Part shown: positions 11,801 through 58,252 of the stretch, one piece after another
Layout: each line of letters starts with the position of its first letter
Position numbering within the stretch: position 1 is the stretch's first letter
From: Amphibalanus amphitrite
Lineage: Eukaryota; Arthropoda; Thecostraca; Balanomorpha; Balanidae
Assembly: GCF_019059575.1 (NCBI RefSeq)
Contig: NW_024881780.1
Coordinates: 248,001-312,000, forward strand
DNA length: 64,000 nt
Direction of reading: 5' to 3'
The notes under the pieces: model-generated
What the model saw: the letters and a program-made list of their open reading frames with translations, nothing else
The model's database searches: none
What the model was told of the DNA's origin: nothing
Made by a program: the position numbers and the translations under genes

Positions 11801-14800
11801 AGTCATTTTTCTAGCAATGGAAAGCGTGGTATCTGAATGATTGAAAGTCGAACTTGAACTGAAAAGGTTTTTATAAGATCAATAAATCTACTGACATACA
11901 AATTGATTTGATCGCTCATCAGTTAGACACATAGAACCCCATACCTATATCTGGCTCATAGCAATAGGGTCAATTATGCCGTCTTCATCAAGGAATTTGA
12001 AAGTTCCTCGATGTTTTCAGTTGGCCTTGCAAAAACTAACCACGGAAAATCTTGAACTAAGCTTTCAGAAAAAAAAAAGGATAAAGCTTTATCGGTCACA
12101 GACAAATGTGAGCCTCAGATTGGAGCCTCAGGAGCAGGGCCCTCACACACTGTGGCGCAATATCAGACAGCATGTAGCGGGAAAACAGCCATCACAGAGG
12201 ACTGTGCCCCTGGTGTCCGCTGGTGATATGAACGCGTACTTTGTTAACGTTGGGCCGAAAGTCGCGCGCGAGGTGAGACTACAGGGGAGTGAACCGAGTA
12301 TCCCCGGTAGGCTGCCGCGAGTGGGAGCGTGCGCCTTTGCCGTGTCTGCCATCGACCTCCGTACACTTAACAGCGTCATATTAAGCATGCCCGGAACCTC
12401 GGCCTGCGGGGTCGATGGCATATGTGTCCGAGTCATAAAAATGTGTCTACCTGTGATCAGCCACATACTGCTCCATTTGGTTAACTCGTGCCTTACTCGA
12501 TGTGATATCCCTGCGGAGTGGAAACACTCCCTCGTCAATCCCATCCATAAATCCGGCGATCCTTCCAATCCCGTCAACTTCAGGCCCATATCCATCATCC
12601 CAGTTATATCCAAAATAGTTGAGCGAGTGGTGCAGCGACAGCTGTACCACTACCTCACTATCAACCACCTCCTTTCCGACACCCAACACGGCTTCCGCAC
12701 TCGCCATTCCACCGAAACGGCACTGGTCACCATTTCGGATCGCGTTCTCCTGGCTAACGATCAAAATCAAATTTCGCTCCTCTGCCTGCTTGATCTTAGT
12801 AAATGTTTCGATGTCATAGACCATTCTAAGCTTCTTCAAAAACTTCAGTTACACGGTGTGGACACTGCATGGTTTGAGGCGTACCTGCAGAACCACACAC
12901 AGAGCGTCAGCTTCACTGATGTCTCTGGCAACAGGCAGACATCAACCGCGCTTCCGAACAACATGGGCGTTTTTCAAGGTTCGGCACTAGGTCCCCTCTT
13001 ATACACCGTCTTTTCAAACGACCTCAGCCTGTTCGTGCCGGATGCGACCGTTGTCCAGTACGCGGACGACACCCAGGTCATGGTCTGCGGCAACAGGACA
13101 GCCCTGTCAGATCTGACTGAGCGCATGGAACAGGTCCTTTCCTCTCTCGACCTCTGGTTCCGCGCAAATTCTCTCAAGGTGAACCCCGACAAAACTCAGT
13201 TGATAGCTTTTGGCAGTAGACAAAATCTGCGGAACATCACACCTTTCGGCGTCAAATTCCGCGAGCGTACAATTCAGCCCGTCTTAGAAGTTAGAAATCT
13301 AGGGGTGGTCTTTGATCGCCACCTGTCCTGGGACGCCCATGTGCAAGAAATTACGCGCAAATGCTTCGGGATCCTCATTGGCCTGTCGCACATCCGTCAC
13401 TATCTTCCGGTCGAGGTCCTCCCCACCATCGTAGCCGCCCTGGTGCTTTCCCGCGTCCGCTACTGCCTCCCTGTGTACGGCAACGGCAGCCGAAAGAATC
13501 TAGACAAGATTCAAAAAGTGATTAACTTTGCTGCGCGTGTCGTATCAGGTCGAAGGAAGTTCAGCCGTTCAGCGGACGTCAGGGCGGCACTGGGGTGGCT
13601 CGATGCGGAAGACCTATTTAAATTTCATACGCTCGCATTACTCCACAAAATTTGCATGCATCACACACCAGTGTCGCTTTCATCCTCACTCCAAACAAAC
13701 CGTGAGACACGAGAACGGAGCACTCGACATGATGATGACCTGCGTCTGCCACGTGTACGGACGGAGACTGGGAGGCGCCGGTTCTTGTACCGTGCACCGA
13801 TGCTGTACAATGCCCTCCCAGTGGAAATGCGCACGATGACAGTTGCCAATTTTAATCACGCTCTCAAGCGAGTTATTAGCACGAGGGAAACATAGGAATG
13901 CGTGTTTTACTACTAGTTACTTGCTGTCGTCGTCATTATTGTCTTATTTTAGTTTTTTCCCTTTTTATTATGCCCGTTTTAGTTTATGTGCATGTGGAAA
14001 GTGTGAATGTCTTTTTATATCACTGCATTTCACAACTTGACTGATGGCAAGGAATAGCCACTATGAGTGGATTTGCCTGAATAAAAATTGGTATTGGTAT
14101 TGCAGCATACCTTCGTTTATCAACGAGAAAATGACGGCTCCATCTCAGCCAAAGTCAAAGAAAAATTGACCTTTCGGCTTATCGTTCTTATCGTTCACTG
14201 CACCACTGCACCTGTGGGTTTTCAATCTCAAAGTCATGCACTGGTATTGCACGAGCGAGAGAGAAAGCATTGCTTGGCGATTTACGATATGTCAGCATTT
14301 GTGTCTATGTGAACCTCTATTTACTACATCGTGACATAAAGTCGAGATCAATGACCTCATAGAGCAGATTTGGCCCCTGGCTTTGGCCCGTAAAACGCTG
14401 CAGTAGCGAACAAAACGTGCCAGCGGTGAAACGTCAGTGGTGCACGTACACGGAAAATGACGAGACACAGCTGTAGGATTGGTGAAAACATTCGCCAGAT
14501 TTGATAGAGGCTGATTAGATAATCGGCTTAGGAAAAGACACGATAGCATTGCATTCCTCGCCGAGCTATCGGAGGACAGCGATAAACGTTTTGGCAACAG
14601 TTTCACTGGCCATCCGGAACCAAGTTCAACTGTCAGATAGTCCGAGCGATACGTTTTAGCCAGTAGCGTAGAATTGTTCCAACTTGATCAGAAACATCCT
14701 GTCTCAGAAAAAAATATAGGAATGCAGGTAATGGCGAATTTTGAATAGGAAACAAAACGTGAACAAATCACGTTGTAGACATGATGTGCGAAGCATTTAA

Positions 14801-17800: not shown

Positions 17801-20800
17801 GGTTTCCATAGGAGATCACACCATGAAGAAATATTTTTGATGTTAACAGTTGAAAGGGGATTGATCTTCCAGTTTTGACGAAAGACGCTGCTGACTGTCT
17901 TTGGAAAAGGATGTCGGCATGAGGTGCAATTGTGCTTGTGAAGTGGTTATAACTGGTCTTTTCACAGTGTTAAATTAAATGTGCTATTGCAGCCAAGTGT
18001 GTTATCATGTAAGGTAAAATCAAAACTACAATGTTGGTTTTACGAGCATTGAGAAGGCTGGTAGGTAACACCTGCCTGTGCTCGTAAATCATGCTGCCAA
18101 AGTATTCTAAATTAATTTTATCATACACTTTTGTTGTCCAGAATGGTTGCACTATTGTTTGGTATCATATTATTCCATGTACATATGGTAGTGTTAAGTC
18201 CGACCAACATGTTACCAGATTTGAAGCTGTTACGTTACCTAAGTACCTACCTGTTTTTTTTTTTTTACTGGCGTGGTGAATGTCACCTGGATTTTGTTTT
18301 GAGGTGCAGACCTAGTAACTCTGACTACATGGGTTTGAAGCTATTATCTATTCTGTTCTGTTGTTGCTATTATTACTGGCCTGGTGAATGGCGACTGATG
18401 TTGTCCGTGGATGGCACTGAAACAAATTTTGAGTGTCAACTGCCATGTACAGTGTTTTAATACAATGCTGAGGGCTGAAAGTTGTCTTGTTTAGAGTGGT
18501 GAAAGTTCAGGATATGCCAGCCACCATGGTGGGTCAGAGTTAATGTGTTGCAGTCAGTTCGGCTTCGGCAAGCACACGGATGGGCATACGCATCAAGACC
18601 TGCTCTGCCATACTTTCAGCCAATTTTACCTAGGCAAGTCTTTTCTTTTTTTTTCTGCCAAAAGCTATGACATTGTGAATTTCAGTGCTGTGGCCTGTGT
18701 GTAGCTTTCAGGAAAGCAATTCTAAATAAAGCTCTGATAAAGTGCATGAAATCAGCAATGCAGCCCTCTATTACATTTTCTACAACATCTTACTTGTTCC
18801 TTGCATGGACAGAAAAATGCAATGTTATGAATTCGTTTATTCACATAATTTGACAAACATGCAGTTACCTGCTACTATCACTGCACAAAACAGAGCAGAA
18901 AACATCAGGCCCATGTCGTCCCCTATCTCTCTGCGTGTCCACTAACACGAATGACGTCACGCATGTGGGCGGAGCTATGGGCGGAGCCTAACGCACGCGG
19001 CAGTCCAAGCCGCCATATTTGAATTTATATTTTAATAGAATCTTGCCGATATTTTGGGTGAAGTCAATTTATATGGATAGCTTGGTGACAGTTTAGCTAT
19101 ACGAATAATAATTTATTATGGATGTGCGTATATTCAGCTTGGAATTGCAATTAAAGTTCCGCACCGCATAGACTCGAACTCGGGACCTTTGAAATACTGC
19201 GCGGGCACGCTAACCACTACACTACCGCGACCGCGCGGCGGCCGGCGACAGGGAGGCTGCGGAGACATGGGGGGACATTTTACGCTTTTGTGAAAAAAGC
19301 AAAAGATTTAGCGAAAAACACGTAATAGATAACTTGCAGAAAATTGTCTGCTCTTTTAGATAAGATACATAAGTTTGATATATCTTGTGCAGACTTCATT
19401 CTACAGTGCTTCGAAAATCGCTCATTTACATGGGGATTGAACGGGGCTTCGAGACTTGACTCTAAATGACGTCACGAGCTGACGTCACGAAAAGGTAGAA
19501 TCGCCGGACGACCCTACCTGGTATATAGGGCCTTGGAAAACATCAGTTGATCAAACACAAGACACAACAGAAGTTTACAACATAGGCCTGCCGAACCTGC
19601 TTCCTCCCACCACAGTTGATGCCATTTCCTAGCCTGGCTTGATGTGAGCACTGAATAGCTGCTTTGTCTAATTACAGCTCACTACCATTCAACTTAAACT
19701 ACTCTCTTTAAAGTAAGAGTGAGAGCATTCAGTGTTCATAGCAGCTCGACAGACGACAGACAACAAACATCTTGACAAACCAACCAGTATTTGATTTGGC
19801 TAATGATTTATGTGCCTGTTGTATCATGGCCAAACTACTTTAACAGCAATAATCCCTGTTTCATCTTGATCTTGCTTTTAATTCCATTTGAACTCAGATC
19901 TTGAAACAATCATCTGAAGTGATATCAGATACTGGCTTCTGTTTCTCTTGAAAGCAAGTTAAAACAACAATGATAAACTAAGGCAGGAGATGTGAGTTGT
20001 GGCAGTAGATTTTTGATTCAACATATGTCAACCTTATATTGCTTGAGACCTCTGTGAAAGACAAACAAATATTTATAGTTTTTTGATAGTTTGGATTCTT
20101 GGCTTGATTTAGCAGATCAGCTGTGAACCTTGACTTTGAAATCACATAAATACCTTTACCTTACCTTAATTTGATCGGAATTTAGAGGCTACTATGCCTG
20201 TAGGGAACCGTTCTCATCGAGCTCGTAACATGTGGGACTTGTCTAACTCCTGTCAGGTATCAGATACCTGATGTTTGCCCAATGGGCGTCCAGTCTTGAT
20301 TTGAACTGTTCGACAGAGACAGCTCCGACGACCGACGAGGGCAAGCTATTCCAATCGTTGACAACCCTCACACTGAACGACTGCCTTCTTGGTCGGCTTT
20401 CAGCTCTGGGCTTCTGGACTTTGCGCGAGTGGCCTCGGGTACGATCGTCAGTGGCAGTCGAAAAGAAATCCTCCGGAGACAGGTCGACCCCTCCATTGAA
20501 CAGCTGGTACATCTGGATCATATCTCCACGTCGTCGACGGTAGGACAGTGTAGGCAGTTTTAAGGTTTGCAGTCGTACTTCATAGGGGAGGTGTCTAATC
20601 GAGGCCACCAGGCGTGTTGCTCTCCTTTGGACCTTTTCAATAAGGAGTTGATCCGCGCGGTTGAACGGACCCCATGCCACATTTCCGAACTCCAAGTGTG
20701 GGCGCACCAGAGTCTTGTACAGCAGTGGGAGTGTGAACTCGTCGATAAGCTCGAATGAACGCCTAATGACTGCCAGGATCTGGTTGGCCTTCGCCGCAGC

Positions 20801-23800
20801 CGTGGCAGCTTGCTTGCGAAATTTAAGCGAAGAGTCAATGTGGACACCAAGATCGCGTTCTGTTTCCACCGCCTCTAGTTCGACCCCTCTCATGGTGTAC
20901 TTGATTCGAGGATTGTTCCGTCCCAGATGCAGGATCTTGCACTTCCCCTCGTTAAATGGGAGCTGCCATCGGTCAGACCATTCCACCAGGGCATCAATAT
21001 CGTCTTGAAGTGTCGTTACGGCCGTCGGGTCTCGCGCCTGCTGCATAGGCGATGGTCGGGCAGAGTGGTATCTGACATCTCTGACATGAGAGACAGCCAC
21101 CTCTCCCTCTTCATCATCCTCAGGCAGGGCTCCAACCGTGTTCAGACGTCGCTCTTCAGGGGCGCGCTGGGTAAGTTGAGTGGAATGGTTCCTGCCAGCC
21201 CTTTGTTGGGCGACAGCCAGTTCCACAACCTCAGCGGCTGCAGAGCTCGAGTCACTGTCATAAAGCGTTGACACGTCCCGATAGAGCTTTGTATCATCGG
21301 CGAACATTTTCACAGAACAGTCTACCACAGAGGGGATATCGTCGACAAACAACAGAAACAAGAGGGGTCCCAGGACCGAGCCTTGAGGAACTCCGCTTCT
21401 GACAGCCAATGAGTCTGAAAGGCTTCCGTTTACAACGACTTTTTGATTGCGTCCGGAAAGAAATGCCTCAATCCACTTGAGAAGTTTGCCGGATATCCCA
21501 GAACACCTCAACTTTTTCAGAAGTCGGTTGTGTGGGACAGAGTCAAATGCTTTTCGGAAATCTAAGTATGCCACGTCGACGGGATCACCCCGCTCGAGCA
21601 TCTTGGTCCAGTCGTCCAGAACCTCCATGAGTTGAGAGCTGCAGGATCTACGGGGACGGGTACCATAAATGTCATGGTACCCGAACGAATCCTCGCATGA
21701 CATTTCTTCGTCCGCATTTCTTCGTCTACAAATCTTCGTCGGTGCATTTATTTGTCCATCAATGCTTACTCTTGCATATATTTGCGTTGAAGAAGAAATG
21801 CGAGCCGATTTTCATATACCCTGATGCGAGACAAAGTAATGCGATACGAATAAATGCCCTGACGAAGATTTGCAGACGAAGAATTGCGATACGAAAAAAT
21901 GCCATAAGAAGAATTGTCCTGGAATCCTTTGTTGGCCATCATATATTGACCTTGATAAGATAAACGCATCATTCGCGCAATATTTGTCGCACTTTGATAC
22001 CAAATTATTGCTTCCAAATGCCGACGTAAAGAAAACCTTTATGTGACGTCATAGAAACAGCGGAGTTCCCAAAAAGTAAACAAAAATAAAAGTCTTATAT
22101 CTCGAAAACGGTACGTCTGTCAAGACAGCCTCAGATTCAGATTCACTTTCAGAATCACATTCGGACCCCCTTAGATTTTCATAAAAACTGGTCCATGGGT
22201 ACAGTTTTGGACGCTGATTCCAATGGTGAAGTCTGTTTTTCGCCACATATTATACTTTGGCCCCTAGAGGCATTCAAAGTTTTTTTTTGGGGAAGGGGGA
22301 CCCCCTTAGATTTTCATAAAAACTGGTCCAAGTGTACAGTTTTGGACGCTGATTCCCATGGTGAAGTCTGTTTTTCGCCACATATTATACTTTGGCCCCT
22401 AGGGCATTCAGATTCACTTTCAAAATCACATTCGGACCCCCTTAGATTTTCATAAAAACTGGTCCATGGGTACAGTTTTGGACGCTGATTCCAATGGTGA
22501 AGTCTGTTTTTCGCCACATATTATACTTTTGCCCCTAGAGGCATTCAAAGTTTTTTTTGGGCGAAGGGGGACCCCTTAGATTTTCATAAAAACTGGTCCA
22601 TGTGTACAGTTTTGGACGCTGATTCCAACGGTGAAGTCTGTTTTTCGCCACATATTATACTTTGGCCCCTAGAGGCAGGCATTCAAAGTTTTTTGGGGAA
22701 GGGGGACCCCCTTAGATTTTCATAAAAACTGGTCCATGTGTACAGTTTTGGACGCTGATTCAAATGGTGATGTCTGTTTTTCGCCACAAATTATACTTTG
22801 GCCCCTAGAGACATTCAAAGTTTTTTTGGGGCGAGGGGGGACCCCCTTAGATTTTCATAAAAACTGGTCCATGTGTACAGTTTTGGACGCTGATTCCAAC
22901 GGTGAAGTCTGTTTTTCGCCACATATTATACTTTGGCCCCTAGAGGCATTCAAAGTTTTTTGGGGAAGGGGGACCCCCTTAGATTTTCATAAAAACTGGT
23001 CCATGTGTACAGTTTTGGACGCTGATTCCAACGGTGAAGTGTGTTTTTCGCCACATATTATACTTTAGCCCCTAGAGGCATTCAAAGTTTTTTGGGGAAG
23101 GGGGACCCCCTTGGATTTTCATAAAAACTGGTCCATGGGTACAGTTTTGGACGCTGATTCCAATGGTGAAGTCTGTTTTTCGCCACATATTATACTTTGG
23201 CCCCTAGAGGCATTCAAAGTTTTTTGGGGCGAAGGGGGACCCCCTTAGATTTTCATAAAAACTGGTCCATGGGTACAGTTTTGGACGCTGATTCCAATGG
23301 TGAAGTCTGTTTTTTGCCACATATTATACTTTGGCCCCTAGAGACATTCAAAGTTTTTTTTGGGGCGAAGGGGGACCCCCTTAGATTTTCATGGCCTCTA
23401 GGGGCAAAAGTATAACATGTGGCGAAAAACAGACTTCACCGTTGGAATCAGCGTCCAAAACTGTTCACATGGACCAGTTTTATGAAAATCTAAGGGGGTC
23501 CGAATGTGATTCTGAAAGTGAATCTGAATGCCCTAGGGGCCAAAGTATAATATGTGGCGAAAAACAGACTTCACCATGGGAATCAGCGTCCAAAACTGTA
23601 CACATGGACCAGTTTTTATGAAAATCTAAGGGGCAGGGGTGTCGATTTTTCAAAATGGTTGGGGGTGCTCAACCCCTGCACCGGGTGACAGATTGCAGCT
23701 TTGCCATGCGGCACAACCGTACAAGGCGGGGTTGGTTATCCCCATAAGGTACTGATAATGTCGGGATTTCTATATACCAGGGTTGTGCTCGACTCAAAAA

Positions 23801-26800
23801 AATTTACCGACTCGACTCATCATTCAACCTCAGAAAGCCCTGACTCAACTCTGACTCAAACAAGGAGCTGATTTTTTCCCTTGACTCGACTCATGACTCA
23901 AGCGGCTCAATGAAAATATGAGTCGACTCAAACTTGACTCAAATTTTTTGTTGAGTCAAGTGAGTTGACTCAAAATTGACTCTGATAAAAAAAAAGCTCT
24001 TGAGCGGGGGGAGGGGGGTGAAAAAGTCCGGCAACAGGGTCAGGGAAGCGGGGGTGGGGAATGAAAAGCTTGTTTCTGGAAAGTTGAGTCAGCTGACTCA
24101 TGTTCCCAAATGTTTGACTCAACTCAATGTCAAAAGTTATTTTACTGACTCAACTCTGACTCAACTCAACGCCTTAATATTTTTGTCCGACTCAACTCTG
24201 ACTCAACTCAACAGCTCAAAAATTTATCAGATTCGACTCAAATCTGACTCATTTGAGTCAGAGTTGAGTCAAATTTTTGACTCGACTCATGAGTCAAGCA
24301 CAACCCTGCTATATACTAACATTTCCCAAGGGCAGAACGTTCTTCTTGAAAATCATTCTGCTCGTCCTATAGGCTACCTGATTACATAAACATCTTTCCG
24401 AAAAAAAATATTTTTGCCGGCAGCATGGCAGCAGCCCCGACACCTCTGTAATAAGGTGACAGAAACCAATGACGGTGATTAGCACCGGTGCAGCAGCCGC
24501 TGCGGTCCGCAGGGGCGGACATTGCGCGGAGGCAACGGTAGCTACGAGGCTCTGGCGGTAATCAGACGATCCCAATATCGATGAAAAATGACAGGTGATC
24601 GCATTTGGATATTTACGGGTTTACGATTTTCCCCAGTGGCGTAGCCAGGTGGGCCGTGAGGCACGTGCCTCCCCCCCCCCCATCAGGTTCGGGCCTCAGG
24701 GTCCCCTCGGGTTATTCGGGCCTGAGGGGCCCTGAGGCGCCAATTGGCCGCTAAGGGTCAATGCTGGCCATATTTGGACATAGAAGGGATCCACGGGGCT
24801 CGTAAAAACCCCTCATGGGCCCACAAGTACCAACACTAAGATCTCCACAAGGGCCCCAAGCCAGTCTCTGAGAGCCACTTGGCGGCCTCTGAGGGCCCCT
24901 TACCGGCTTCGGAGGGCCACATGTCGGACTATGGGGGTCTTAACCGGCCTATTCCCAGCCAGCAAATTTGGTCCTGGCCGTAGCTGGTCTTACTCTGGCT
25001 AGCTCCGGCATTTGCTCCGGCTAAAGTATGGGCAAGGTCTGGGGGCCTACGGGAGCTGACACACGATACCGGAGCTCGCCCGCATCACAGCCGGACTTAT
25101 GCCGCATCAGCCGTGCCGTACCTCCACCGTACTTCAGCCACAGTAAGCCAGAGCAGCTATGAGGTGCAGCCGGACCTGGTCGTAGGGAGCCGGACTTGAG
25201 CCATGGCAGGGAGTCTGACTTGAGCCAGACTTGGCGGTTCGGAACCATAACTACCCGGGAGCGCTACGGCATATACTGGCTAGCCGGAATAGAGCCGTAT
25301 CGACCCAAACCCCGGATCTGACGGCGATACCCTCGTCAGTTACCAGCGACCCTGACGGTCCCACACAGGTGACTCGGAGGGTCACAGCGGCGTCTGAGAG
25401 CACCATGTCCGGTCTCTGAGAACCCCACAAGGCTCCTGAAGGCACCGGTGACCTCTTGATATCTTCTTGTCGGCCTATGAAGGGTCCGTTCCGTAACAGC
25501 AGTTCTGAGGGCCACACGCGCGCCTGTGATGGCCCTAAACCAGTGTCTCTGAGAGCCCCCACAACGGCGCCTGTGAGGGCCATCACCGGCAACTGTGGAG
25601 CACCTACACCGGCGCCTCCGAGGGCCATACATTGCATTGCCATATCTGAGGGCCCCGCACTAGTGCCTCTTAAGGCCCTATATCGGCGGCTCTGAGGGCC
25701 AAACACCGTCGCTTCTGAAGGCCCCACAAGCAGGGATGCGGAGCTGGAGCCGGAGCCGGAGCTGGAGCCGGAGCCGCCGGAGCCGGTATATTTTGCCCGG
25801 AGCCGGAGCCGGAGCCGTATTGACATTTCACCCGGAGCCGGAGCCGGAGCTGGAGCCGATTTTTTCTCCGGAGCCGGAGCCGGAGCCGGAGCCGTCTGAA
25901 ATTTCCACGGCTCCGCATCCCTGCCCACAAGTGCACATATGACGGCCACCCACCGGTGACATTTGAAGGCCCCACACCGGCGACTCTGAGGGCCCCATCG
26001 GCGTCTGAGTCCGTGCCGGTCTCTAAAGACGACCCCACAGGGTTTCTGAAGGTACCACCGGCATCTGATGGCCCTTTACCGGCCTCTGAGGGCCCGTCGC
26101 CGGTATCTGGAGCCCCCTGCCGGCTTGTAAAGGGTACGCGTTATCAGCTCTAAGGGTCAGACACTCGTGTACGACGGACCCACACCAGTGTCTCTGCAGT
26201 CTGCAACTTAACGTCTTTTTTTCGCCCTTCTTCTTAAGACTAACTTTTCTTTTCTTTACATTTTTATTTCATGCATTGTAAATTGCGTAATTGTTTTATT
26301 TTTAGTAGTGAAAGACTGCGGAACCAATTATTTTCCTCAAGCAGAGTTAGTGGGAGTTATTGAGGGACAAAATAATTGGGGGTGCTGACTGGAACATTTG
26401 GGGGTGCCCGGAAAACCATTGGGGGTGCTCATTTGAGCATTGGGGGTGCTGCAGCACCCCCAAAAGTATACAAATCGACACCCATGCTAAGGGGGTCCCC
26501 CTTCCCCCAAAAAAAACTTTGAATGCCTCTAGGGGCCAAAGTATAATATGTGGCGAAAAACAGACTTCACCGTTGGAATCAGCGTCCAAAACTGTACACA
26601 TGGACCAGTTTTTATGAAAATCTGAGGGGGTCCCCCTTCGCCCCAAAAAAACTTTGAATGTCTCTAGGGGCCAAAGTATAATATGTGGCGTAAAACAGAC
26701 TTCACCATTGGAATCAGCGTCCAAAACTGTACCCATGGACCAGTTTTTATGAAAATCTAAGGGGGTCCCCCTCCGCCCCAAAAAACTTTGAATGCCTCTA

Positions 26801-29800
26801 GGGGCCAAAGTATAATATGTGGCGAAAAAAGACTTCACCATTGGAATCAGCGTCCAAAACTGTACACATAGACCAGTTTTTATGAAAATCTAAGGGGGTC
26901 CCCCTTCCCCAAAAAACAACTTTGAATGCCTCTAGGGTCCAAAGTATAATATGTGGCGAAAAACAGACTTCACCATGGGAATCAGCGTCCAAAACTGTAC
27001 ACATGGACCAGTTTTTATGAAAATCTAATGGGGTCCCCCTTCCCCCAAAAAAACTTTGAATGCCTCTAGGGGCCAAAGTATAATATGTGGCGAAAACAGA
27101 CTTCACCGTTGGAATCAGCGTCCAAAACTGTACACATGGACCAGTTTTTATGAAAATCTAAGGGGGTCCCCCTTCGCCCCAAAAAAAAACTTTGAATGCC
27201 TCTAGGGGCCAAAGTATAATATGTGTCGAAAAACAGACTTCACCATTGGAATCAGCGTCCAAAACTGTACCCATGGACCAGTTTTTATAAAAATCTAAGG
27301 GGGTCCGAATGTGATTCTGAAAGTGAATCTGAATGCACTAGGGGCCAAAGTATAATATGTGGCGAAAAACAGACTTCACCATGGGAATCAGCGTCCAAAA
27401 CTGTACACATGGACCAGTTTTTATGAAAATCTAAGGGGGTCCCCCTTCCCCAAAAAAAAACTTTGAATGCCTCTAGGGGCCAAAGTATAATATGTGGCGA
27501 AAAACAGACTTCACCATGGGAATCAGCGTCCAAAACTGTACACATGGACCAGTTTTTATGAAAATCTAAGGGGGTCCCCCTTCGCCCCAAAACAACTTTG
27601 AATGTCTCTAGGGGCCAAAGTATAATATGTGGCGAAAAACAGACTTCACCATTGGAATCAGCGTCCAAAACTGTTCCCATCGACCAGTTTTTATGAAAAT
27701 CTAAGGGGGTCCCCCTTCGCCCCAAAACAACTTTGAATGTCTCTAGGGGCCAAAGTATAATATGTGGCGAAAAACAGACTTCACCATTGGAATCAGCGTC
27801 CAAAACTGTTCCCATCGACCAGTTTTTATGAAAATCTAAGGGGGTCCCCCTTCCCCCAAAAAACTTTGAATGCCTCTAGGGGCCAAAGTATAATATGTGG
27901 CGAAAAACAGACTTCACCATTGGAATCAGCGTCCAAAACTGTACACATGGACCAGTTTTTATGAAAATCTAAGGGGGTCCCCCTTCCCCAAAAAAACTTT
28001 GAATGCCTCTAGGGGCCAAAGTATAATATGTGGCGAAAAACAGACTTCACCGTTGGAATCAGCGTCCAAAACTGTACACATGGACCAGTTTTTATGAAAA
28101 TCTAAGGGGGTCCCCCTTCGCCCCAAAAAACTTTGAATGCCTCTAGGGGCCAAAGTATAATATGTGGCGAAAAACAGACTTCACCATTGGAATCAGCGTC
28201 CAAAACTGTACCCATGGACCAGTTTTTATGAAAATCTAAGGGGGTCCGAATGTGATTCTGAAAGTGAATCTGAATGCCCTAGGGGCCAAAGTATAATATG
28301 TGGCGAAAAACAGACTTCACCATGGGAATCAGCGTCTAAAACTGTACACATGGACCAGTTTTTATGAAAATCTAAGGGGGTCCCCCTTCCCCCAAAAAAA
28401 CTTTGAATGCCTCTAGGGGCCAAAGTATAATATGTGGCGAAAAACAGACTTCACCGTTGGAATCAGCGTCCAAAACTGTACACATGGACCAGTTTTCATG
28501 AAAATCTAAGGGGGTCCCCCTTCCCCCAAAAAAAACTTTGAATGCCTCTAGGGGCCAAAGTATAATATGTGGCGAAAAACAGACTTCACCATGGGAATCA
28601 GCGTCCAAAACTGTACACATGGACCAGTTTTTATGAAAATCTAAGGGGGTCCCCCTTCCCCCAAAAAAACTTTGAATGCCTCTAGGGGCCAAAGTATAAT
28701 ATGTGGCGAAAAACAGACTTCACCGTTGGAATCAGCGTCCAAAACTGTACACATGGACCAGTTTTTATGAAAATCTAAGGGGGTCCCCCTTCGCCCCAAA
28801 AAAACTTTGAATGTCTCTAGGGGCCAAAGTATAATATGTGGCGAAAAAACAGACTTCATCATTGGAATCAGCGTCCAAAACTGTACCCATGGACCAGTTT
28901 TTATGAAAATCTAAGGGGGTCCCTCTTCGCCCCCAAAAAACTTTGAATGCCTCTAGGGGCCAAAGTATAATATGTGGCGAAAAACAGACTTCACCATTGG
29001 AATCAGCGTGCAAAACTGTACACATGGACCAGTTTTTATGAAAATCCAAGGGGGTCCCCCTTCCCCCAAAAAACTTTGAATGCCTGTAGGGGCCAAAGTA
29101 TAATATGTGGCGAAAAACAGACTTCACCGTTGGAATCAGCGTCCAAAACTGTACACATGGACCAGTTTTTGTGAAAATCTAAGGGGGTCCCCCTTCGCCC
29201 CAAAAAAACTTTGAATGCCTCTAGGGGCCAAAGTATAATATGTGGCGAAAAACAGACTTCACCATTAGAATCAGCGTCCAAAACTGTACCTATGGACCAG
29301 TTTTTATGAAAATCTACGGGGGTCCGAATGTGATTCTGAAAGTGAATCTGAACCTGAGGCTGTCTTGACAGACGTGAAAACGGTTGAATATTTTCCGGTA
29401 AAATTTGGTAGATGTTCATTTTCGCTCTTTGTGATTCACGCTACATCACTTTTATGCCAATTCATTAATTTTTTTGAAGGTGGGAGGGTCCCTTTAACAA
29501 ACGCTGCAACAAACATCAGGACTTGCAGTAAAAAACAAACACACAAACAAAAACAAACAAAAAACAGTCGAGCATGACCTAATCGAACTTACCCCGTTCC
29601 CGAGACTGCCTCCAATCTGCGGCGACTGCTCTCTGTCGTCTCTCCTCAGAACTGCTGGTGAGCTCGTCACACTGGAGGTGGCGCTGCTGACAGCGGGGTC
29701 CTCGGCATAGGCCTGGCTGCTGAGGGCACCCATACGCTGCCTGCGACTGAAACAGGGGTGCCGTTCCTTCAATCCAAATGCACGGGTTATATAAGGACAT

Positions 29801-34426: not shown

Positions 34427-35049
34427 TCAACCCGCTTCCCGCTGGGGGGGGGGGGGCTGAATCTGCCTCCCTTTCGTGTTTTTCAAATAGCTTCAAAGCG
34501 CGTTATGTCAGCAAAGTAAAATGTTTAGTTCTTGTCATCCATTACTTAAACATGATCCCTAAAATTTGGGTGAAAATTGACCTTGACATGATTCATGAAC
34601 TCGATCAGAGCTTCTTTCAAATATGGTTCATATCACTGACTGAGTATGTCCATTGAGTTTCGTGAATAAAATGACCCATAAACGTGTCGCATATATCTTA
34701 ATTCTATAGTTAGTCTGTGGTGACCTGACCTTGACCTTGACTTTTGCATGACATTGTATGCAACGCATCTTGTATTGGTAGCCTAATCAATCCATTACTC
34801 GCCAACTGCGCTCCAAAGCTGATTATGTAGAAACCGGCCGTTTTTACCCTTGACCTGACCTTGATCTTGCCTCTAACCTGCCAGGACAATTTTTTGCTTA
34901 AAGTTCCATCCTGCTGATTGCTTTTCATTGCCGTTTTCCCGTCTTTCTACCACCTCGGATCGTAAGTAAGTGGGGAGACAGAATCTGCCACTCCCCTCCC
35001 CCAACCCCCACCCCTCCCCAGCAGGGCGCGTATGGCCGAATAGGGTTAA
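34427..35049. mobile_element. Diverged TTAA-type MITE (AACCCGC ends)
   Basis: It begins TCAACCCGCTTCCCGCTGGGG with a long G-run and ends in C-runs, then GGGTTAA. TGACCTGACCTTGACC half-site strings lie in the middle. Its right TTAA is also the left TTAA of the next element. Confidence 0.6.
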
Positions 35050-36155
35050 CCCGCGCCCCGCTGGGGGAGGGGGGCAGAATCTGCCCCCTCCCGTTTTTCG
35101 CCAATAACTTCTAAACGCGTTACGCCAGCGACGTCAAACTATCAGTACCTTATCATACATCAATATAAGATGCTTCCTAAAAATTTGGGCGAAATCCGTT
35201 GGATTTTTTTTTGAGAAAATGACGTTTTAGTGACGTCATGTCCGCCATTTCGCCTCAAAAACGGCAAAATTTCAAACGCCGCTAACATCTTCATTTTCAA
35301 AGGAATCAAGACAATAAAAATTGTTACACGTGATTCTACTTTGTCTATCAAATGGCTATCTCGGTTTTTTGAAAATTTTGGATTTGGGCCCAAATTTTTT
35401 TCTAAAAAAACTGACTTTTTTGGGAAAATAATTAAAAAATCCAAAATTTTGAGTGTATTAAAAAACGGAAACACGTCAGAGACGTGGTCTATGTGCACCT
35501 ATATACCAATTTTTAGATGAATCGGTTCAAAATTGTGGGAGTTATTCAAAATTTTATGACGTAACGACACACAAAATTTTTGAGAAAAAAAAGGAAGTTC
35601 TAGATCTCGTACGGAAACAAAAATAGCACCATTCGTTTCACCGTGAAAAACTGCATCAGCTGTACACCTTTTTAGGCCTTAACAACCAACTTCAAAATTT
35701 GACCTCACTTGACCTGACCTTGATCCCTGACTTCGACCTGAAAATCATCCAGATGTGGTCCATATCACTTATTGAGTGTGCCTATTGAATTCTATGAATA
35801 AAATGACCCATAAGACATCTATCGCACATGCCGTTTTCTATATTTCGTTTTGGTGACCTGACCTTGACCTTGACCTTTGCATGATATTGTATGCAACGAA
35901 TATTGTCTTGTTAGCCTAAGAACACGTTTTGGGCAATCAGTCTCAGTCCATTCTTCGGCAACTACGGTGCAAGGCCGATAATGTAGAAACTTGCATTTTG
36001 TACCCTTGACCTGACCTTGACCTGACCTCTGACCTACTTAAGCAAAAAAATTGGGCTCTTAAGATCCGCCTTGTTGAGAGCTTTCGATTGCCGTTTTCCC
36101 CGTCTTTCTACGACCATCGGTTCGGAAGTTCAGGGGGCAGCGGAGCGCGGGTTAG
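35046..36155. mobile_element. TTAA-type MITE, TTAACCCGCGCC family
   Basis: The left end is TTAACCCGCGCCCCGCTGGGG and the right end is GCGGAGCGCGGGTTAG. A TGACGTCA and several TGACCTTGACCTGACC strings are inside. Non-coding. Confidence 0.7.
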
Positions 36156-40930: not shown

Positions 40931-41913
40931 ATTGAGGGCCGGTATGGGATTAAAGCTCAGCGACACTACGGGCTTATGTGGTGCCTTCGGTTATCGGTAG
41001 CAACTAGCACCCTCAGAATCACCGGCGTAGGGCCCTCAGAGCCGCCGGTAAGGGGCCTTTAGAGGCACCGGTGTGGGGCCGTCATGCAGGTGCCGGTGTG
41101 GGCGCTCAGAGGTGCTAGTGTGATTCTCTCAGAGGAGCCGATGAGGGTCCTTACAGGCGTTGCTGTGGGCCCTCATAGACGCTGGTGTGGAGCCGTTACA
41201 GACGGGTGTGGGGGCTTTAGAGCTGCTGACGCGAACTCTCTACAAGCCGGCAGGGGTCTCAGTGACCGGCAAGGGGTCCTTAGGCCGGCAGAAGAAGTCC
41301 TGTGGGGTCCTTAGAGACCGGCATGGTACTGTCAGACGACGGGGGGGCCCTCAGACCCACCGGTGTGGGACCCTCAAAAGTCACCAGTGGGCGGCCTTTA
41401 GATGCGCAGGTGTTGGCTGGGTCCTCAGAGCCGCCGATACAGGGCTAATTTTAATAAGCACTGGTGTAGGCACTCAGAGTTGGGGGTGTGAAACCCTCAG
41501 AGACACCGGTGTGGGCCCTCATAGGCGCCGATGAGGGCCCCATAGGCCCATAGCTGCCGTTATGGGGCCCTCAGAAAAATAAGTGTGGGACCATCACAGG
41601 CGGGAAATGCCCCTAGAACTGACCCCTCATAGGCCGGTAAGGACTCTCAGAGACCAGTAACGGGCCTTTGGAGACCACCGAGGTGCCCTGAAAAGGCGCA
41701 AGACTGCCTTCAGAAGCCGGCGTGGGGCCCTTATGAAGATCTTAGTGTGGCTATTTAGGGCCCATGAGGTGCTCTAACGAGCCCCATGGGGCGGTCAGCG
41801 GTTTGACCTTCAGCAGTCAAATGGCGCCGCAGGGCCCCTCGGACCCGAGGGTCCCTTTGAACCCGATGGGGGGGGGGGGTACGTGTCCCCTTAGACCCCT
41901 AGCTACGCCACTG
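40930..41913. repeat. GGGCCCTCAGAG minisatellite ending in a GCTACGCCACTG terminus
   Basis: About forty degenerate units of roughly 22-30 bp (GGCCCTCAGAG followed by GCCGGTGTGGG) end at 41902-41913 with GCTACGCCACTG, the inverse of the terminus at 24634. It is a one-ended element fragment. Confidence 0.65.
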
Positions 41914-46468: not shown

Positions 46469-47905
46469 TTAACCCTCGCATGTGTGCGGCGTTTTCCAGC
46501 TTCTAATGTGTGTGGGGGGGGGGGGTCGGTTGGACCCCCCCCCTTGCCGTTTGGCCCCTGATCGAGCTAGAGCTTCGCGGAAAAAACGAGCGTGTTGCCC
46601 GTGACGAGAGGAAGCCGATGATACCCAATTTTAAGGTCCTAGGTCATTGGGTGACCTTCCAGGTCAGGTCAATGACCCAAAGTTGGGAAAATCGGGACCT
46701 GCTAGAAAGTCGTAAAGTGTGGCTGCTAAGCGGGTTTTCGGGGTGCTGATCACGAATATCGTGTTAGTTTTGATCACAGATGATGTCTTTAAGCATTTAG
46801 ACCAGGTCGGGTCAGGTCAGGTCAGGTCAACCAGTAGGCATCGTGACGGGTATTCGTAGTACGTGTCAACCGCCTCTGACAGCTTCGTAACATGTTACGA
46901 AGGCACCAAAACTACTTCGTAAATGTTCAAATGGTTGCTAAATTCGAATTCAGCTCGAAAAACTAGCCTAGAAACATGTACAGCTCGAAAAAGTGAACCG
47001 AGGTCACCCGAGGTCACCAAAGGTCAATGACCTGACCTGACCTTCAGGTGACCTTGACACCCACCCTAATGCATGGAAGCAACATCAAATCACATGTTTG
47101 AACGTTTGGAGCCACGAAAAGCTTGCAAACGCGCGGCTAATGCGTGCCGACATACGCAGAATCGCGATTCCGGCCAAACATGGTCTCGGAAAAGAGGTCA
47201 CAGGCAGGGTTGTGCTTGACTCATGAGTCGAGTCAAAAATTTGACTCAACTCTGACTCAAATGAGTCAGATTTGAGTCGAGTCGGATAAATTTTTGAGCT
47301 GTTGAGTTGAGTCAGAGTTGAGCCGGACAAAAATTTTAAGGCGTTGAGTTGAGTCAGAGTTGAGTCAGTAAAATAACTTTTGACATTGAGTTGAGTCAAA
47401 CATTTAGGAACATGAGTCACCTGACTCAACTTTCCAGAAACAAGCTTTTCATTCCCCACCCCCGCTTCCCTGACCCTGTTGCCGGACTTTTTCACCCCCT
47501 CCCCCCGCTCAAGAGCTTTTTTATCTGAGTCAATTTTGAGTCAACTCACTTGACTCAACAAAAAATTTGAGTCAAGTTTGAGTCGACTCATATTTTCATT
47601 GAGCCGCTTGAGTCATGAGTCGAGTCAAAGGAAAAAATCAGCTCCTTGTTTGAGTCAGAGTTGAGTCAGGGCTTTCTGAGGTTGAATGATGAGTCGAGTC
47701 GGCAAATTTTTTGAGTCGAGCACAACTCTGGTCACAGGTCAAAGGTCATTTGGGTCAGGGTCATGAAATTTTCAGGGTAGGTGTAAAATTGATCAATGTG
47801 AGGGTACTGAAAGTTTCGTCGCGATCGGCCGCTTTTTACGCGAGTTATTCGCGAAAAACCATGGGGGTCCATCCGACCCCCCCCCCCTACACATGCGAGG
47901 GTTAA
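46469..47905. mobile_element. TTAA-type MITE, TTAACCCTCGCATGTG ends, interrupted
   Basis: The ends are TTAACCCTCGCATGTG and CACATGCGAGGGTTAA (the right is ACATGCGAGGGTTAA), with G-run/C-run tracts and strings such as GGGTCAGGTCAGGTCAGG near 46808. It is interrupted by a hAT MITE at 47205-47730; without it the element is about 0.9 kb. Confidence 0.85.
47205..47730. mobile_element. hAT MITE rich in TGASTCA motifs, copy 2
   Basis: Its ends are CAGGGTTGTGC and GCACAACTCTG, with an exact 8-bp duplication GTCACAGG at 47197-47204 and 47731-47738. It is the same family as 23778-24308 in inverse orientation. Confidence 0.9.
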
Positions 47906-53141: not shown

Positions 53142-54774
53142 GTATGGGTCGGTGGCGACAGGGTGCTTTGCCGGATGGTAGCTTACTGGGTTCGTTTGAT
53201 GGTATGTTGTTTTATATTTGTGCGCGGACTTGTATTTCATAATGGTTGCATTTTTGCGAGGCACGTGAGCTTTAAATGATTCATGCCAGTAAGTGATGTG
53301 TGCTTGACAGAGAGCCCTTTATATTTATTCACTGATTTTACACTTGTTTGAAGCCTGTCTGTCTCTTCTGATACAGCCTACGAAGTAACTCAATATGACC
53401 TGTCCTTCACAGTTTATCTGCATGTCGTGCTCCGCCGTGGTGATGACACTGGACTCGTACGAGACCAAGATTCTCGAAATCCGAGAGGAGATAAAGCGCA
53501 AGTTCCTCGACATGATGAAGATCCGGGCTGAAAAGTACGGCCAGTTGCAGGTGAGAATAAAGGTCGATCGAGTCGTTCGATAAGTGTGCAACGTGCAGTC
53601 TGTGTGGAAGTAGGTGTCAAGTTTCTGTCGGAGCACTTAGATAAGAGTCGGTCTTGTAACGCGATAAGAATTGCAGACAAGATGTTGACTCGAGTGGCTA
53701 TAAACTTAAGTTTTTATCAAATGAAGCTGCTGGAGCTTCTGATCGCCCCCACATTTAGTTTTTTTCTGCTTTCGTCAGAAGGTATTAAGAGCGCTAACTT
53801 CTCTAGTAAAAGTTAGGTTAGATTAGGTTAGGTTAATCTCAAAATATTTTCACCATTTGTTTTTGAGAGGAAAGCGTTTTTTGTGTGCTATGAGCTGTCG
53901 CGTTCTAATTTCTTAAGATGTCCTAGATAGTTCGCATCCCGAAATGCGCTGCAAGTCAGTATTTCGATTTCACATTTCGACCTCTGCTCATGCCTGCCAT
54001 GAACATCCCACCCAATCACTGTGGTGCCCACCGTAACCTCGCTCCCGCCGTCGGCAGCCGCCGCCGCCCCCGACCCAGGCGGCCTCTCGTGTGGTACCGC
54101 GAGTGAAACGTGAGCCGGGCGACGACACGGCCGCCGCCGCCACGGATGACCCCAGCGAGCGACTCGAGTGTGAGGTGGAGCTGCACGAGAGCTCTACCGG
54201 CAGCACGGACGGGTCACCCCGCGACGAGCTCACGTGTGGCGTCTGTCACAAGCAGTTCCGCAACAAGTACAACCTGAAGCGACACAGCACCGTGCACGCC
54301 GGCGTGAAACCGTTCAACTGCCAGTTCTGCACGCGTGCCTTCCGCCAGAAGGATCACCTGAAGACACACACCCGGTCGGGCCCCTCGGCGGCGCCGCTGC
54401 AGTGCGCGCCGTGCGGCCTGACGTTCCCGTGCTTCACGCTGTTCTCGGAGCACCGACAGCAGTACCACAGCGAGGCGGGAGACAACGCCTGCAAGCACTG
54501 CGAGTTTGTGTTCACGACAGCCACCGAGCTGCGCCGCCACTGCCGCCAGCAGCACCCGCATCCGGTCAAACAGGAGTTCCGGTGCTCCCTCTGCGGCCGG
54601 GAGTTCCCTAACGGCTTCAACCTGCGCCGCCACCACCTGACCCACTCGGGGGAGAGGCCGTTCGGGTGCGATGTGTGCGGGAAGAGGTTCACGCAGCCGT
54701 CGATTCTGAAGAAGCACTCGAAGGTTCATGAGAAGAAGCTGCCCGGGATGAAGGACCTCATCACCACCATGTGA
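52872..54774 (+). CDS. ZAD-like C2H2 zinc-finger protein, three exons
   Basis: Exons 52872-53141, 53413-53550 and 54058-54774 join in phase 0 throughout to give 374 residues. The N-terminal 136 residues contain CILC (exon 1) and CMSC (exon 2) pairs around a helical LETVVHPGCG region. This resembles the zinc-finger-associated dimerisation domain (ZAD) of arthropod C2H2 proteins. The C-terminal half has six C2H2-type fingers. Proteins of this layout are nuclear DNA-binding factors; the target is unknown. The ATG is the first in frame, but the frame stays open upstream, so an earlier start or exon is possible. An alternative acceptor at 54078 would shorten the third exon by seven residues. Confidence 0.75.
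53413..53550 (+). CDS. Zinc-finger gene exon 2
   Basis: The acceptor is TTCACAG (to 53412), with 46 codons from FICMSC through an amphipathic helix (ETKILEIREEIKRKF) to CAG|GTGAGA. The CxxC followed by a helix completes the ZAD-like module. Confidence 0.75.
54058..54774 (+). CDS. Zinc-finger gene exon 3: six C2H2-type fingers
   Basis: The acceptor is GTCGGCAG (to 54057). Fingers start at residues 196, 224, 252, 281, 312 and 340 of the 374-residue protein. Fingers 1, 5 and 6 are canonical (for example CDVCGKRFTQPSILKKH). Fingers 3 and 4 have H-x4-H. Finger 2 (CQFCTRAFRQKDHLKTH) lacks its last His, with Gly in its place. Linkers HSGERPF and HAGVKPF are TGEKP-like. Stop TGA at 54772-54774. Confidence 0.9.
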   Translation, partial: PPPPPTQAASRVVPRVKREPGDDTAAAATDDPSERLECEVELHESSTGSTDGSPRDELTCGVCHKQFRNKYNLKRHSTVHAGVKPFNCQFCTRAFRQKDHLKTHTRSGPSAAPLQCAPCGLTFPCFTLFSEHRQQYHSEAGDNACKHCEFVFTTATELRRHCRQQHPHPVKQEFRCSLCGREFPNGFNLRRHHLTHSGERPFGCDVCGKRFTQPSILKKHSKVHEKKLPGMKDLITTM

Positions 54775-57562: not shown

Positions 57563-58074
57563 AGCTCAGGTCAACCGGTGACCTCTCGAGCATTATTCAG
57601 TGCCGGCGAGCATTATAACTTTTCCTGAGGCTAGGACACTATAACGTAACCTAAGTGACCCGACCTTGAAATATCTAGGTCTGATTCATTCCGCCATCAC
57701 AAGTGTTAAGAAAAGATGTAATATCACTTATCAGGCATGCGTGGAGGGGTGTTGCAGCCCCCCCCCCCCCCCAACGCAGCAGTGTGCAGAGAGCCTGCTT
57801 TGTTAAGCAATAAATCTAGCCAGCTACTTTGAAGCTGAAGATATAAAGAAAAAGGGTTCTGAGTCGCGACGGCGCTGTTCCGACTGCGACTCTTAATCTG
57901 ACTTCGGTCTGCTGATCGGCTCCGACTCCGACTCTGACTCCGGACCAGTGCACTGCCATAAGCTAAACGTATCACTTGCCGGTACGGGGATGGACGCAAC
58001 TCTCCCGGACTGCTTTCCTAGCTAGACTCTGCAACATTTGTTGGTCTGCTAAAATTTTTCAGCAGATCTTATGG
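57563..58074. other. Intergenic sequence
   Basis: It contains a C-run at about 57760-57773 and a GACTCCGACTC run near 57930. No gene is recognised. Confidence 0.4.

Positions 58075-58252
<178 letters not shown>

What the first reader, a model, noticed from the sequence alone, without database searches (positions are those of the whole stretch)
22104..29384. A structurally complete Foldback transposon with 9-bp target duplication
Inverted arms made of ~135-bp direct repeats, near-identical ~90-bp outer ends and an exact GAAAACGGT duplication are the FB-element plan known from Drosophila. The outermost 20 bp contain a CTGTC-AA-GACAG hairpin. The monomer resembles no family I know.
Basis: partly seen in the sequence, partly recalled or inferred. 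Interest (0 to 1): 0.75.

Follow-up and report, generated by a model that had tools for sequence, protein, structure and literature searches.

The report
Spacer-less foldback transposon, 9-bp duplications
This is a real mobile DNA element made almost only of a repeated 135-base unit running in and then back out again; it follows a known plan (foldback elements), and its many copies show how such long DNA palindromes change their arm lengths and rebuild their centres.

Summary
Window 22113-29375 is an inverted pair of ~135-bp repeat arrays with near-identical ends, inside an exact 9-bp duplication. The 22-bp terminus occurs 188 times exactly in the 807.55-Mb genome; 154 of these form 77 convergent pairs. 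Of 33 other copies read across both ends, 30 have an exact 9-bp duplication, the other 3 nearly so. One target also exists unoccupied, with the 9 bp single, at 71 places. It is a mobile foldback family.

Corrections: the 2.85 kb in the centre is a nested hAT-like insertion (23634-26486). Of 33 copies mapped whole (window and 32), all have one + to - switch and 24 are array throughout; no common middle was seen. Thirty-eight turnarounds fall into about 20 kinds. Three copies of one insertion event carry right arms of 7, 17 and 19 repeats.

No transposase with these ends was found; none of 111 MULE-domain places lies inside a pair, but 40 pairs were only sampled and 3 not read. Mutator-type mobilisation is inferred from the 9-bp duplication. 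Host unnamed.

The parts
22104..22112 (.). left copy of the 9-bp target site duplication GAAAACGGT
   Evidence: exact match to 29376-29384
22113..22134 (+). left terminus ACGTCTGTCAAGACAGCCTCAG, with the palindrome CTGTC-AA-GACAG at 22117-22128
   Evidence: 188 exact copies in the genome, 154 of them in 77 convergent pairs
22113..23392 (+). left arm: terminal module plus about 9 monomers of ~132-135 bp in + orientation
   Evidence: TRF and arm mapping
23386..23401 (.). turnaround of the palindrome (TTTTCAT/GGCCTCTAG), no spacer; same class as L027, L020, L037 and L077
23393..23633 (-). inner part of the right arm (inverted monomers) up to the nested insertion, including the hAT-type duplication CTAAGGGG at 23626-23633
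23634..26486 (.). nested hAT-like non-autonomous element (ends CAGGGGTGTCGATTT / AAATCGACACCCATG); not part of the foldback element
   Evidence: 8-bp duplication CTAAGGGG on both sides; it interrupts the array
26487..29375 (-). outer part of the right arm: about 21 inverted monomers plus terminal module (first 8 bp are the second hAT-type duplication)
29354..29375 (-). right terminus, identical to the left over 22 bp
29376..29384 (.). right copy of the 9-bp target site duplication GAAAACGGT

Best explanation
A non-autonomous cut-and-paste DNA transposon of foldback type. It consists of inverted satellite-like arrays of a ~135-bp monomer capped by a conserved ~53-bp terminal module. SHOWN: precise insertion at varied sites with a 9-bp duplication; fixed ends in the paired copies; one + to - switch and no common coding middle in the copies read whole; arm lengths that differ, in this assembly, between copies of one insertion event; about 20 kinds of turnaround. 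INFERRED: a transposase supplied in trans, probably Mutator-like (MULE), recognises the terminal module; internal copies of the sub-terminal motif may be extra binding sites. Arms gain and lose whole monomers by unequal exchange or slippage. The palindrome's centre is now and then broken (hairpin or cruciform cleavage, or interrupted gap repair after excision) and re-joined by end joining, giving new turnarounds that then spread by transposition.
For: Ends and duplications: 77 convergent pairs; 30 of 33 exact 9-bp duplications; 71 unoccupied copies of the target of the L025/L036/L038 insertion carry the 9 bp once, 26 of them exact, control 0. Terminal conservation over 66 termini: positions 1-53 are 98-100% (the first 22 fixed by selection), later positions 86-100%. 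No middle: 33 of 33 mapped copies have a single + to - switch, 24 of 33 no other segment of 15 bp or more; 17 of 19 mid-point samples from further pairs are wholly array, 2 mostly other sequence, and L113, read whole, is array with its turnaround. Turnarounds: 38 fall into 20 classes by shared 14-mers, 6 of them with more than one copy. Of 32 measured, 17 have 0-5 bp overlap, 5 have inserts of 7-43 bp, and 10 have apparent overlaps of 20-32 bp that contain the monomer's own AAGGGGGACCCCCTT palindrome or a near copy; L113 has an insert that resembles nearby arm sequence by eye. Arm change in one lineage: L025, L036 and L038 share 1.1 kb of left flank and diverge 75 bp to the right of the insertion. 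L025 differs from L038 by 5 mismatches in 3,426 aligned bases and one 265-bp (two-monomer) gap; L036 is 1,659 bp shorter and departs from L038 a few bases from the turnaround.
Against: No transposase gene was found between these ends. None of 111 PF10551 places (150 of 204 candidates scored) lies inside a pair; the nearest is 8.1 kb outside one. So 'Mutator-type' rests on the 9-bp duplication alone. Of 77 pairs, 34 were read whole (window, L009-L040, L113), 40 sampled at 1-3 points and 3 not read; 16 of 40 samples from the 21 large pairs are not array, so a rare coding copy could be missed. The 34 unpaired termini were hardly looked at inward. Arm lengths depend on correct assembly of long arrays. 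Arms of one element are hardly more alike than arms of different elements (mean monomer identity 0.961 same arm, 0.962 opposite arm, 0.959 other elements). No statistical test of the junction overlaps was made.
Confidence: 0.82

Rival explanations
1. The palindrome is an assembly or sequencing artefact (for example hairpin-adapter read-through or mis-joined satellite), not a transposon.
For: Long spacer-less palindromes of satellite are hard to assemble, and arm lengths in particular could be wrong (general knowledge).
Against: Different flanks on the two sides joined by a 9-bp duplication in 30 of 33 copies; unoccupied target copies with a single 9 bp; the same turnaround class in copies with different flanks.
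Confidence: 0.03
2. Internally deleted derivatives of an autonomous element with long repetitive inverted ends: the ~20 turnarounds are independent internal deletions (as in Galileo '2TIR' copies), not remodelled palindrome centres.
For: Galileo 2TIR copies are described as deletion derivatives (PMC3573991, passages). The turnarounds show little overlap and some inserts, as end joining would leave. 16 of 40 samples from large pairs are not array, and three unpaired termini leave the array early, so a coding form is not excluded.
Against: Non-array pieces compared with each other gave two shared groups only: L024/L040/L061/L081 (with short stretches in L026, L109, L129), of which the L040 member looks like an ordinary nested insert; and L062/L066, a G+C-rich repeat that also lies inside the window's nested hAT (25733-25924). 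Neither looks like a common middle. The 16-bp terminus followed by anything other than C occurs once, no more than its control. The L036 versus L038 difference sits beside an existing turnaround, which fits centre remodelling.
Confidence: 0.3
3. A satellite array that spreads by rolling-circle or recombination-based insertion rather than by a transposase.
For: The element is otherwise satellite-like, and its monomers form one genome-wide pool.
Against: Fixed termini and fixed-length 9-bp duplications at varied sites are the mark of a DDE-type transposase (established knowledge).
Confidence: 0.03
4. Mobilisation by a P-, hAT- or Rehavkus-type transposase instead of a canonical MULE.
For: Foldback form arises in several superfamilies; Galileo is P-type. 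Rehavkus elements have 9-bp duplications and a minisatellite (PMC6446971, passages) and their transposase was not searched for here.
Against: hAT elements make 8-bp duplications and P/Galileo 7- or 8-bp ones (recalled); these copies make 9. Rehavkus fits as well as MULE.
Confidence: 0.25

Closest known systems
Drosophila FB (foldback) elements, FB4/NOF (structure recalled; only secondary mentions seen)
   Same: Long inverted arms built of tandem repeats, 9-bp target duplication, arms of unequal and variable length, loop-less forms (recalled).
   Different: Monomer ~135 bp rather than about 10-31 bp (recalled); no common middle domain in the 33 copies mapped whole; NOF-like genes were not searched for.
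Tm1 Mutator/Foldback family of root-knot nematodes (PMC3169594, passages)
   Same: Composite inverted ends of variable length, 8-10 bp (mostly 9 bp) duplications in 45 of 53 complete copies, mostly non-autonomous copies.
   Different: Tm1 has a coding copy with a FLYWCH + MULE (Phantom-type) transposase; none found here with matching ends.
Tetris of Drosophila virilis (PMC4079207, passages)
   Same: Non-autonomous foldback with ~220-bp tandem repeats in its arms, 8-9 bp duplications, satellite-like arms, transposase not found.
   Different: Tetris arms reach 1.7 kb with a flanking domain of up to 866 bp and a middle domain, and three structurally complete copies; here the cap is ~53 bp, arms reach 47 counted repeats, no middle was seen, and 77 pairs are listed.
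Galileo '2TIR' copies (PMC3573991, passages)
   Same: Copies made of two long inverted ends; in subfamily F tandem repeats change number independently in each arm.
   Different: P superfamily; a coding form exists; two or three internal repeats per arm at most in the passages seen.
Phantom-type MULEs in the same genome (L055, L056-L059)
   Same: L055 encodes FLYWCH + MULE domains, and L056-L058 have inverted ends of short direct repeats: a possible kind of trans-acting partner.
   Different: Their termini (repeats of a TTTGGTCTAGTG type) do not resemble this terminus, and no monomer is present in the ~3.3 kb held of each.

Membership tests
Foldback (FB-like) elements, structural class | long inverted arms composed of tandem direct repeats | tested here: met
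   33 of 33 mapped copies
Foldback (FB-like) elements, structural class | arm length variable between and within copies | tested here: met
   arm repeat counts from 1-2 to 47; same-insertion copies with 7, 17 and 19
Foldback (FB-like) elements, structural class | fixed termini with target site duplication | tested here: met
   30 of 33 exact 9-bp, 3 near-exact; empty target
Foldback (FB-like) elements, structural class | a middle or loop domain between the arms (in many, not all, FB-like elements; recalled) | tested here: not met
   no common middle in 33 mapped copies; window middle is a nested hAT-like element; L024 has 494 bp of non-array sequence at its turnaround, like part of an insert in L040
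Mutator/MULE superfamily | target site duplication of about 9 bp | tested here: met
Mutator/MULE superfamily | transposase with MULE domain (PF10551) encoded by a member with the same ends | tested here: inconclusive
   111 PF10551 places, none inside the 77 pairs; pairs with diverged ends and unpaired termini not excluded
Phantom subclass | FLYWCH + MULE transposase between the ends | tested here: inconclusive
   such a gene is in the genome (L055), but its relatives have other termini
Rehavkus | 9-bp duplication; PHD-finger transposase; minisatellite | not tested
   no model of the Rehavkus transposase was searched; the 9-bp duplication alone fits
P superfamily (Galileo) | P-type transposase; 7- or 8-bp duplication (recalled) | tested here: not met
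   duplication is 9 bp; transposase not searched for
hAT (for the nested 23634-26486 element only) | 8-bp duplication and short CAGGGGTG-like inverted ends | tested here: met
   CTAAGGGG on both sides; ends match over the outer 15 bp with one mismatch; no transposase sought

The most novel reading that the evidence does not exclude
A transposon family that has become pure mobile satellite: long palindromes with no gene and no spacer, whose centres are repeatedly broken and re-joined in the animal's genome, so that each lineage carries a fossil of one palindrome-breakage event. The ~20 turnarounds and the three-copy carrier lineage would then be a natural record of how giant palindromes are processed.
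Probability: 0.45. Interest if true: 0.6.

Novelty: new member of a known kind. Interest (0 to 1): 0.45.

Why it matters
In the foldback papers seen here complete copies are few (three for Tetris). Here 77 end-to-end pairs sit in one assembly, with 30 of 33 tested copies in exact 9-bp duplications, about 20 kinds of centre, and a same-insertion set with different arm lengths. That makes two old questions testable by sequence: how foldback arms grow and shrink, and how the centre of a long palindrome is remade. It also links a transposon to satellite-like DNA, as was proposed for Tetris.

Tried and rejected
Autonomous copy: 111 MULE-domain places compared with 188 termini, none inside a pair. 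Interiors of 21 large pairs sampled at 40 points: 24 array or partly array, 16 not. Non-array pieces included a reverse transcriptase in the C183 pair (L068, E 1.4e-16) and matches just under Pfam's cut-off to RT-type models in a C243 pair (L073) and C837 (L087); most others are unidentified. Two groups of pieces recur in different copies (L024/L040/L061/L081; L062/L066), judged nested repeats, not a middle. The 16-bp terminus followed by a base other than C occurs once, control 1+1.

Unpaired termini: nine of 34 looked at (L041-L048, L004). I had fetched the outer side of eight by mistake, with about 100 bp inside. Six of those eight are array over that stretch; in L041 and L048 the terminal module stops after about 25-35 bp. 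L004 leaves the array after about 300 bp, and its 1.36 kb of inward sequence has no open frame over 91 aa. Inward of L048 there is no array in 1.5 kb (L128; by eye); inward of L041 the sequence is 84% like window 35043-35870, a repeat (L129). I took them as remnants or truncated copies; L004 remains open.

Coding monomer: open frames of up to 196 aa run through the arrays; I do not read them as genes (judgement; 135 is a multiple of 3 and homopolymer length varies), not tested.

Spread elsewhere: the 20-bp terminus has 0 matches in viral contigs and 1 in the prokaryote genomes, in an actinobacterium, about what chance gives (my estimate).

Literature: 8 library searches listed no paper that I recognised as describing this family; I saw only passages of PMC3169594, PMC4079207, PMC3573991, PMC6446971, PMC13359780 and PMC8917513. 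The terminus and monomer were not searched as text.

Dropped rows: L024 was left out of the turnaround analysis because non-array sequence sits at its turnaround. C720, C1670 and C2326 were never read.
Full report
Observation. The window holds an element at 22113-29375 between exact copies of GAAAACGGT. Its ends are identical over 22 bp and match at 116 of 120 positions in inverted orientation. Inside, monomers of about 132-135 bp run in + orientation from 22163 to about 23392 and in - orientation from there to 29325. The terminal palindrome CTGTC-AA-GACAG is present at both ends. The 2,853 bp at 23634-26486 interrupts the array, is flanked by CTAAGGGG twice, and has CAGGGGTGTCGATTT / AAATCGACACCCATG ends. 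It is therefore a nested hAT-like element, itself composite: its bases 143-676 are 97% like window 47204-47732. Without it and its extra 8-bp copy the foldback element would be about 4.4 kb, with arms of about 1.28 and 3.1 kb and no spacer.

Family. The terminus ACGTCTGTCAAGACAGCCTCAG occurs 202 times with up to one mismatch (97 and 105 on the two strands; reversed-pattern control 0). Splitting by the preceding base gave 188 exact places (95 + 93). Of these, 154 form 77 convergent pairs, 1,300 to 22,166 bp apart (median 6,257); 34 are unpaired within 25 kb. Thirty-two further pairs were fetched whole with 100-bp flanks (L009-L040), and one more later (L113). A 9-bp duplication abuts the ends exactly in 30 of these 33. 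L020 has one mismatch; L018 and L037 have the 9 bp plus one extra base (by eye). Three of the 33 are one insertion copied, so 28 of 31 independent events are exact. The duplicated sequences are varied, with a weak excess of G at the first and C at the last position.

Empty site. The target of L025/L036/L038 lies in another repeat. The joined, unoccupied form (CCAAAACAGTGGCTGGATCCACCCTTGGGC) is present at 71 places with up to two mismatches, 26 of them exact; reversed-pattern control 0. In the occupied copies GGCTGGATC is doubled. This shows insertion with duplication of nine bases. The same search for the window's own locus did not complete.

Anatomy of the family. In all 33 copies mapped (window and L009-L040) the array runs + and then -, with a single switch. 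Twenty-four of the 33 have no other segment of 15 bp or more. The other nine carry other sequence; several of those stretches have inverted ends like nested elements. Twenty-one larger pairs were sampled at 1-3 points each: 24 of 40 samples are array or partly array, 16 are not. Of 19 mid-point samples from smaller pairs 17 are wholly array and 2 mostly other sequence; L113 was read whole and is array. Three pairs were not read. Non-array pieces that recur in different copies are L024/L040/L061/L081, with short stretches in L026, L109 and L129, and L062/L066, which also match a repeat inside the window's nested hAT. No common middle was seen. Over 66 termini positions 1-53 are 98-100% conserved and later positions 86-100%; the first 22 are fixed by the way copies were chosen. 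A motif of the terminal module (CATTCAGATTCACTTTCAGAATCACATTCGG) recurs inside the arms (type F).

Arms and centres. Arms hold from one or two to 47 anchor repeats. Among 1,194 monomers the mean identity is 0.961 within an arm, 0.962 between the arms of one element, and 0.959 between elements; pairs at 98.5% or more are somewhat commoner between arms of one element (11%) than between elements (8%). Neighbouring monomers are the least alike, and lags 3, 6, 14 and 19 stand out. The arrays are thus mainly one family-wide pool with multi-monomer periodicity. Thirty-eight turnarounds fall into 20 classes by shared 14-mers (L028 and L029 look like one class by eye, so about 19). The window's class includes L027, L020, L037 and L077. 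Of 32 turnarounds measured, 17 have 0-5 bp overlap, 5 have inserts of 7-43 bp (one of them, L037, is in the window's class and may reflect point changes), and 10 have apparent overlaps of 20-32 bp that contain the monomer's own AAGGGGGACCCCCTT palindrome or a near copy. L113 shows an insert resembling nearby arm sequence, by eye. That is what end joining leaves, but I ran no statistical test.

One lineage in motion. L025, L036 and L038 have the same target, the same left flank over the 1.16 kb compared, and right flanks that part 75 bp after the insertion. So one foldback insertion was carried to three places inside another mobile element (hAT-like by its GAGGAGGCCCTG end; recalled). Read in carrier orientation their arms count 8/17, 8/7 and 8/19. 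L025 and L038 differ by 5 mismatches in 3,426 bases and one 265-bp gap; L032, at another site, differs from L038 by 9 mismatches in 3,293 and gaps of 134 and 265 bp. L040, at a further site and with a nested insert, aligned less cleanly (266 mismatches in 3,640). L036 is 1,659 bp shorter than L038, not a whole number of monomers, and its sequence leaves that of L038 a few bases from the turnaround; the aligner spread that loss over several gaps, since arrays align ambiguously (all). Whole-monomer steps and a centre-adjacent loss thus accompany few point changes in the cleanly aligned pairs. Caveat: array lengths rest on the assembly.

What moves it. A 9-bp duplication is typical of Mutator-like elements and of Rehavkus (PMC3169594, PMC6446971; passages). 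The genome has at least 111 PF10551 places (150 of 204 candidates scored). Of three frames tested, L049 has MULE + SWIM, L053 MULE, and L055 FLYWCH + MULE, the Phantom architecture. The L056-L058 relatives of L055 have inverted ends of short repeats. None of the 111 is inside a pair. In L049-L060, about 3.3 kb each, the monomer was not found and the terminus only as one five-mismatch match. The transposase is therefore unidentified, and Rehavkus/NOF genes were not searched for.

Place among known things. It works like a foldback element and meets that structural class's features except for a middle domain, which is not universal. It resembles Tetris (tandem repeats in arms, no transposase found) and Galileo 2TIR copies, and shares duplication length with Tm1. 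Membership of the Mutator superfamily is likely but untested by transposase. I rate it a new member of a known kind. The unusual points are the lack of any common middle, the number of end-to-end copies, and the diversity of centres.

Noticed in passing
window 23634-26486: Nested hAT-like element with 8-bp duplication; contains a block 97% identical to window 47204-47732 and G+C-rich stretches about 68-80% alike to parts of 41010-41913.
   Followed up: partly
window 25733-25924: G+C-rich GGAGCC-type repeat inside the nested hAT; similar pieces occur in samples from two other foldback pairs (L062, L066).
   Followed up: partly
L025, L036, L038 flanks (G000 C144, C463, C467): A carrier mobile element (right end GAGGAGGCCCTG) that transported one foldback insertion to three places; its unoccupied target sequence is present at 71 places.
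   Followed up: partly
L055-L059: Phantom-type MULE family (FLYWCH + MULE in L055) whose inverted ends are made of short TTTGGTCTAGTG-like direct repeats: a second foldback-like design in this genome.
   Followed up: partly
L128 1-60 (G000 C265:160860), L041 (C4:1389019), L004 (C1176:41464-41602): Solitary foldback termini of about 25-35 bp (two) or about 300 bp (one) followed by other sequence; possible excision or deletion remnants.
   Followed up: partly
window 11907-13895 (+) and 20243-21808 (-): Two open frames with reverse transcriptase domains (PF00078, E 1.8e-32 and 1.3e-19).
   Followed up: partly
window 54037-54774 (+): Open frame with C2H2 zinc fingers (PF00096, PF13465).
   Followed up: no
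window 58074-58251: Long (GA)n microsatellite, about 90 units.
   Followed up: no
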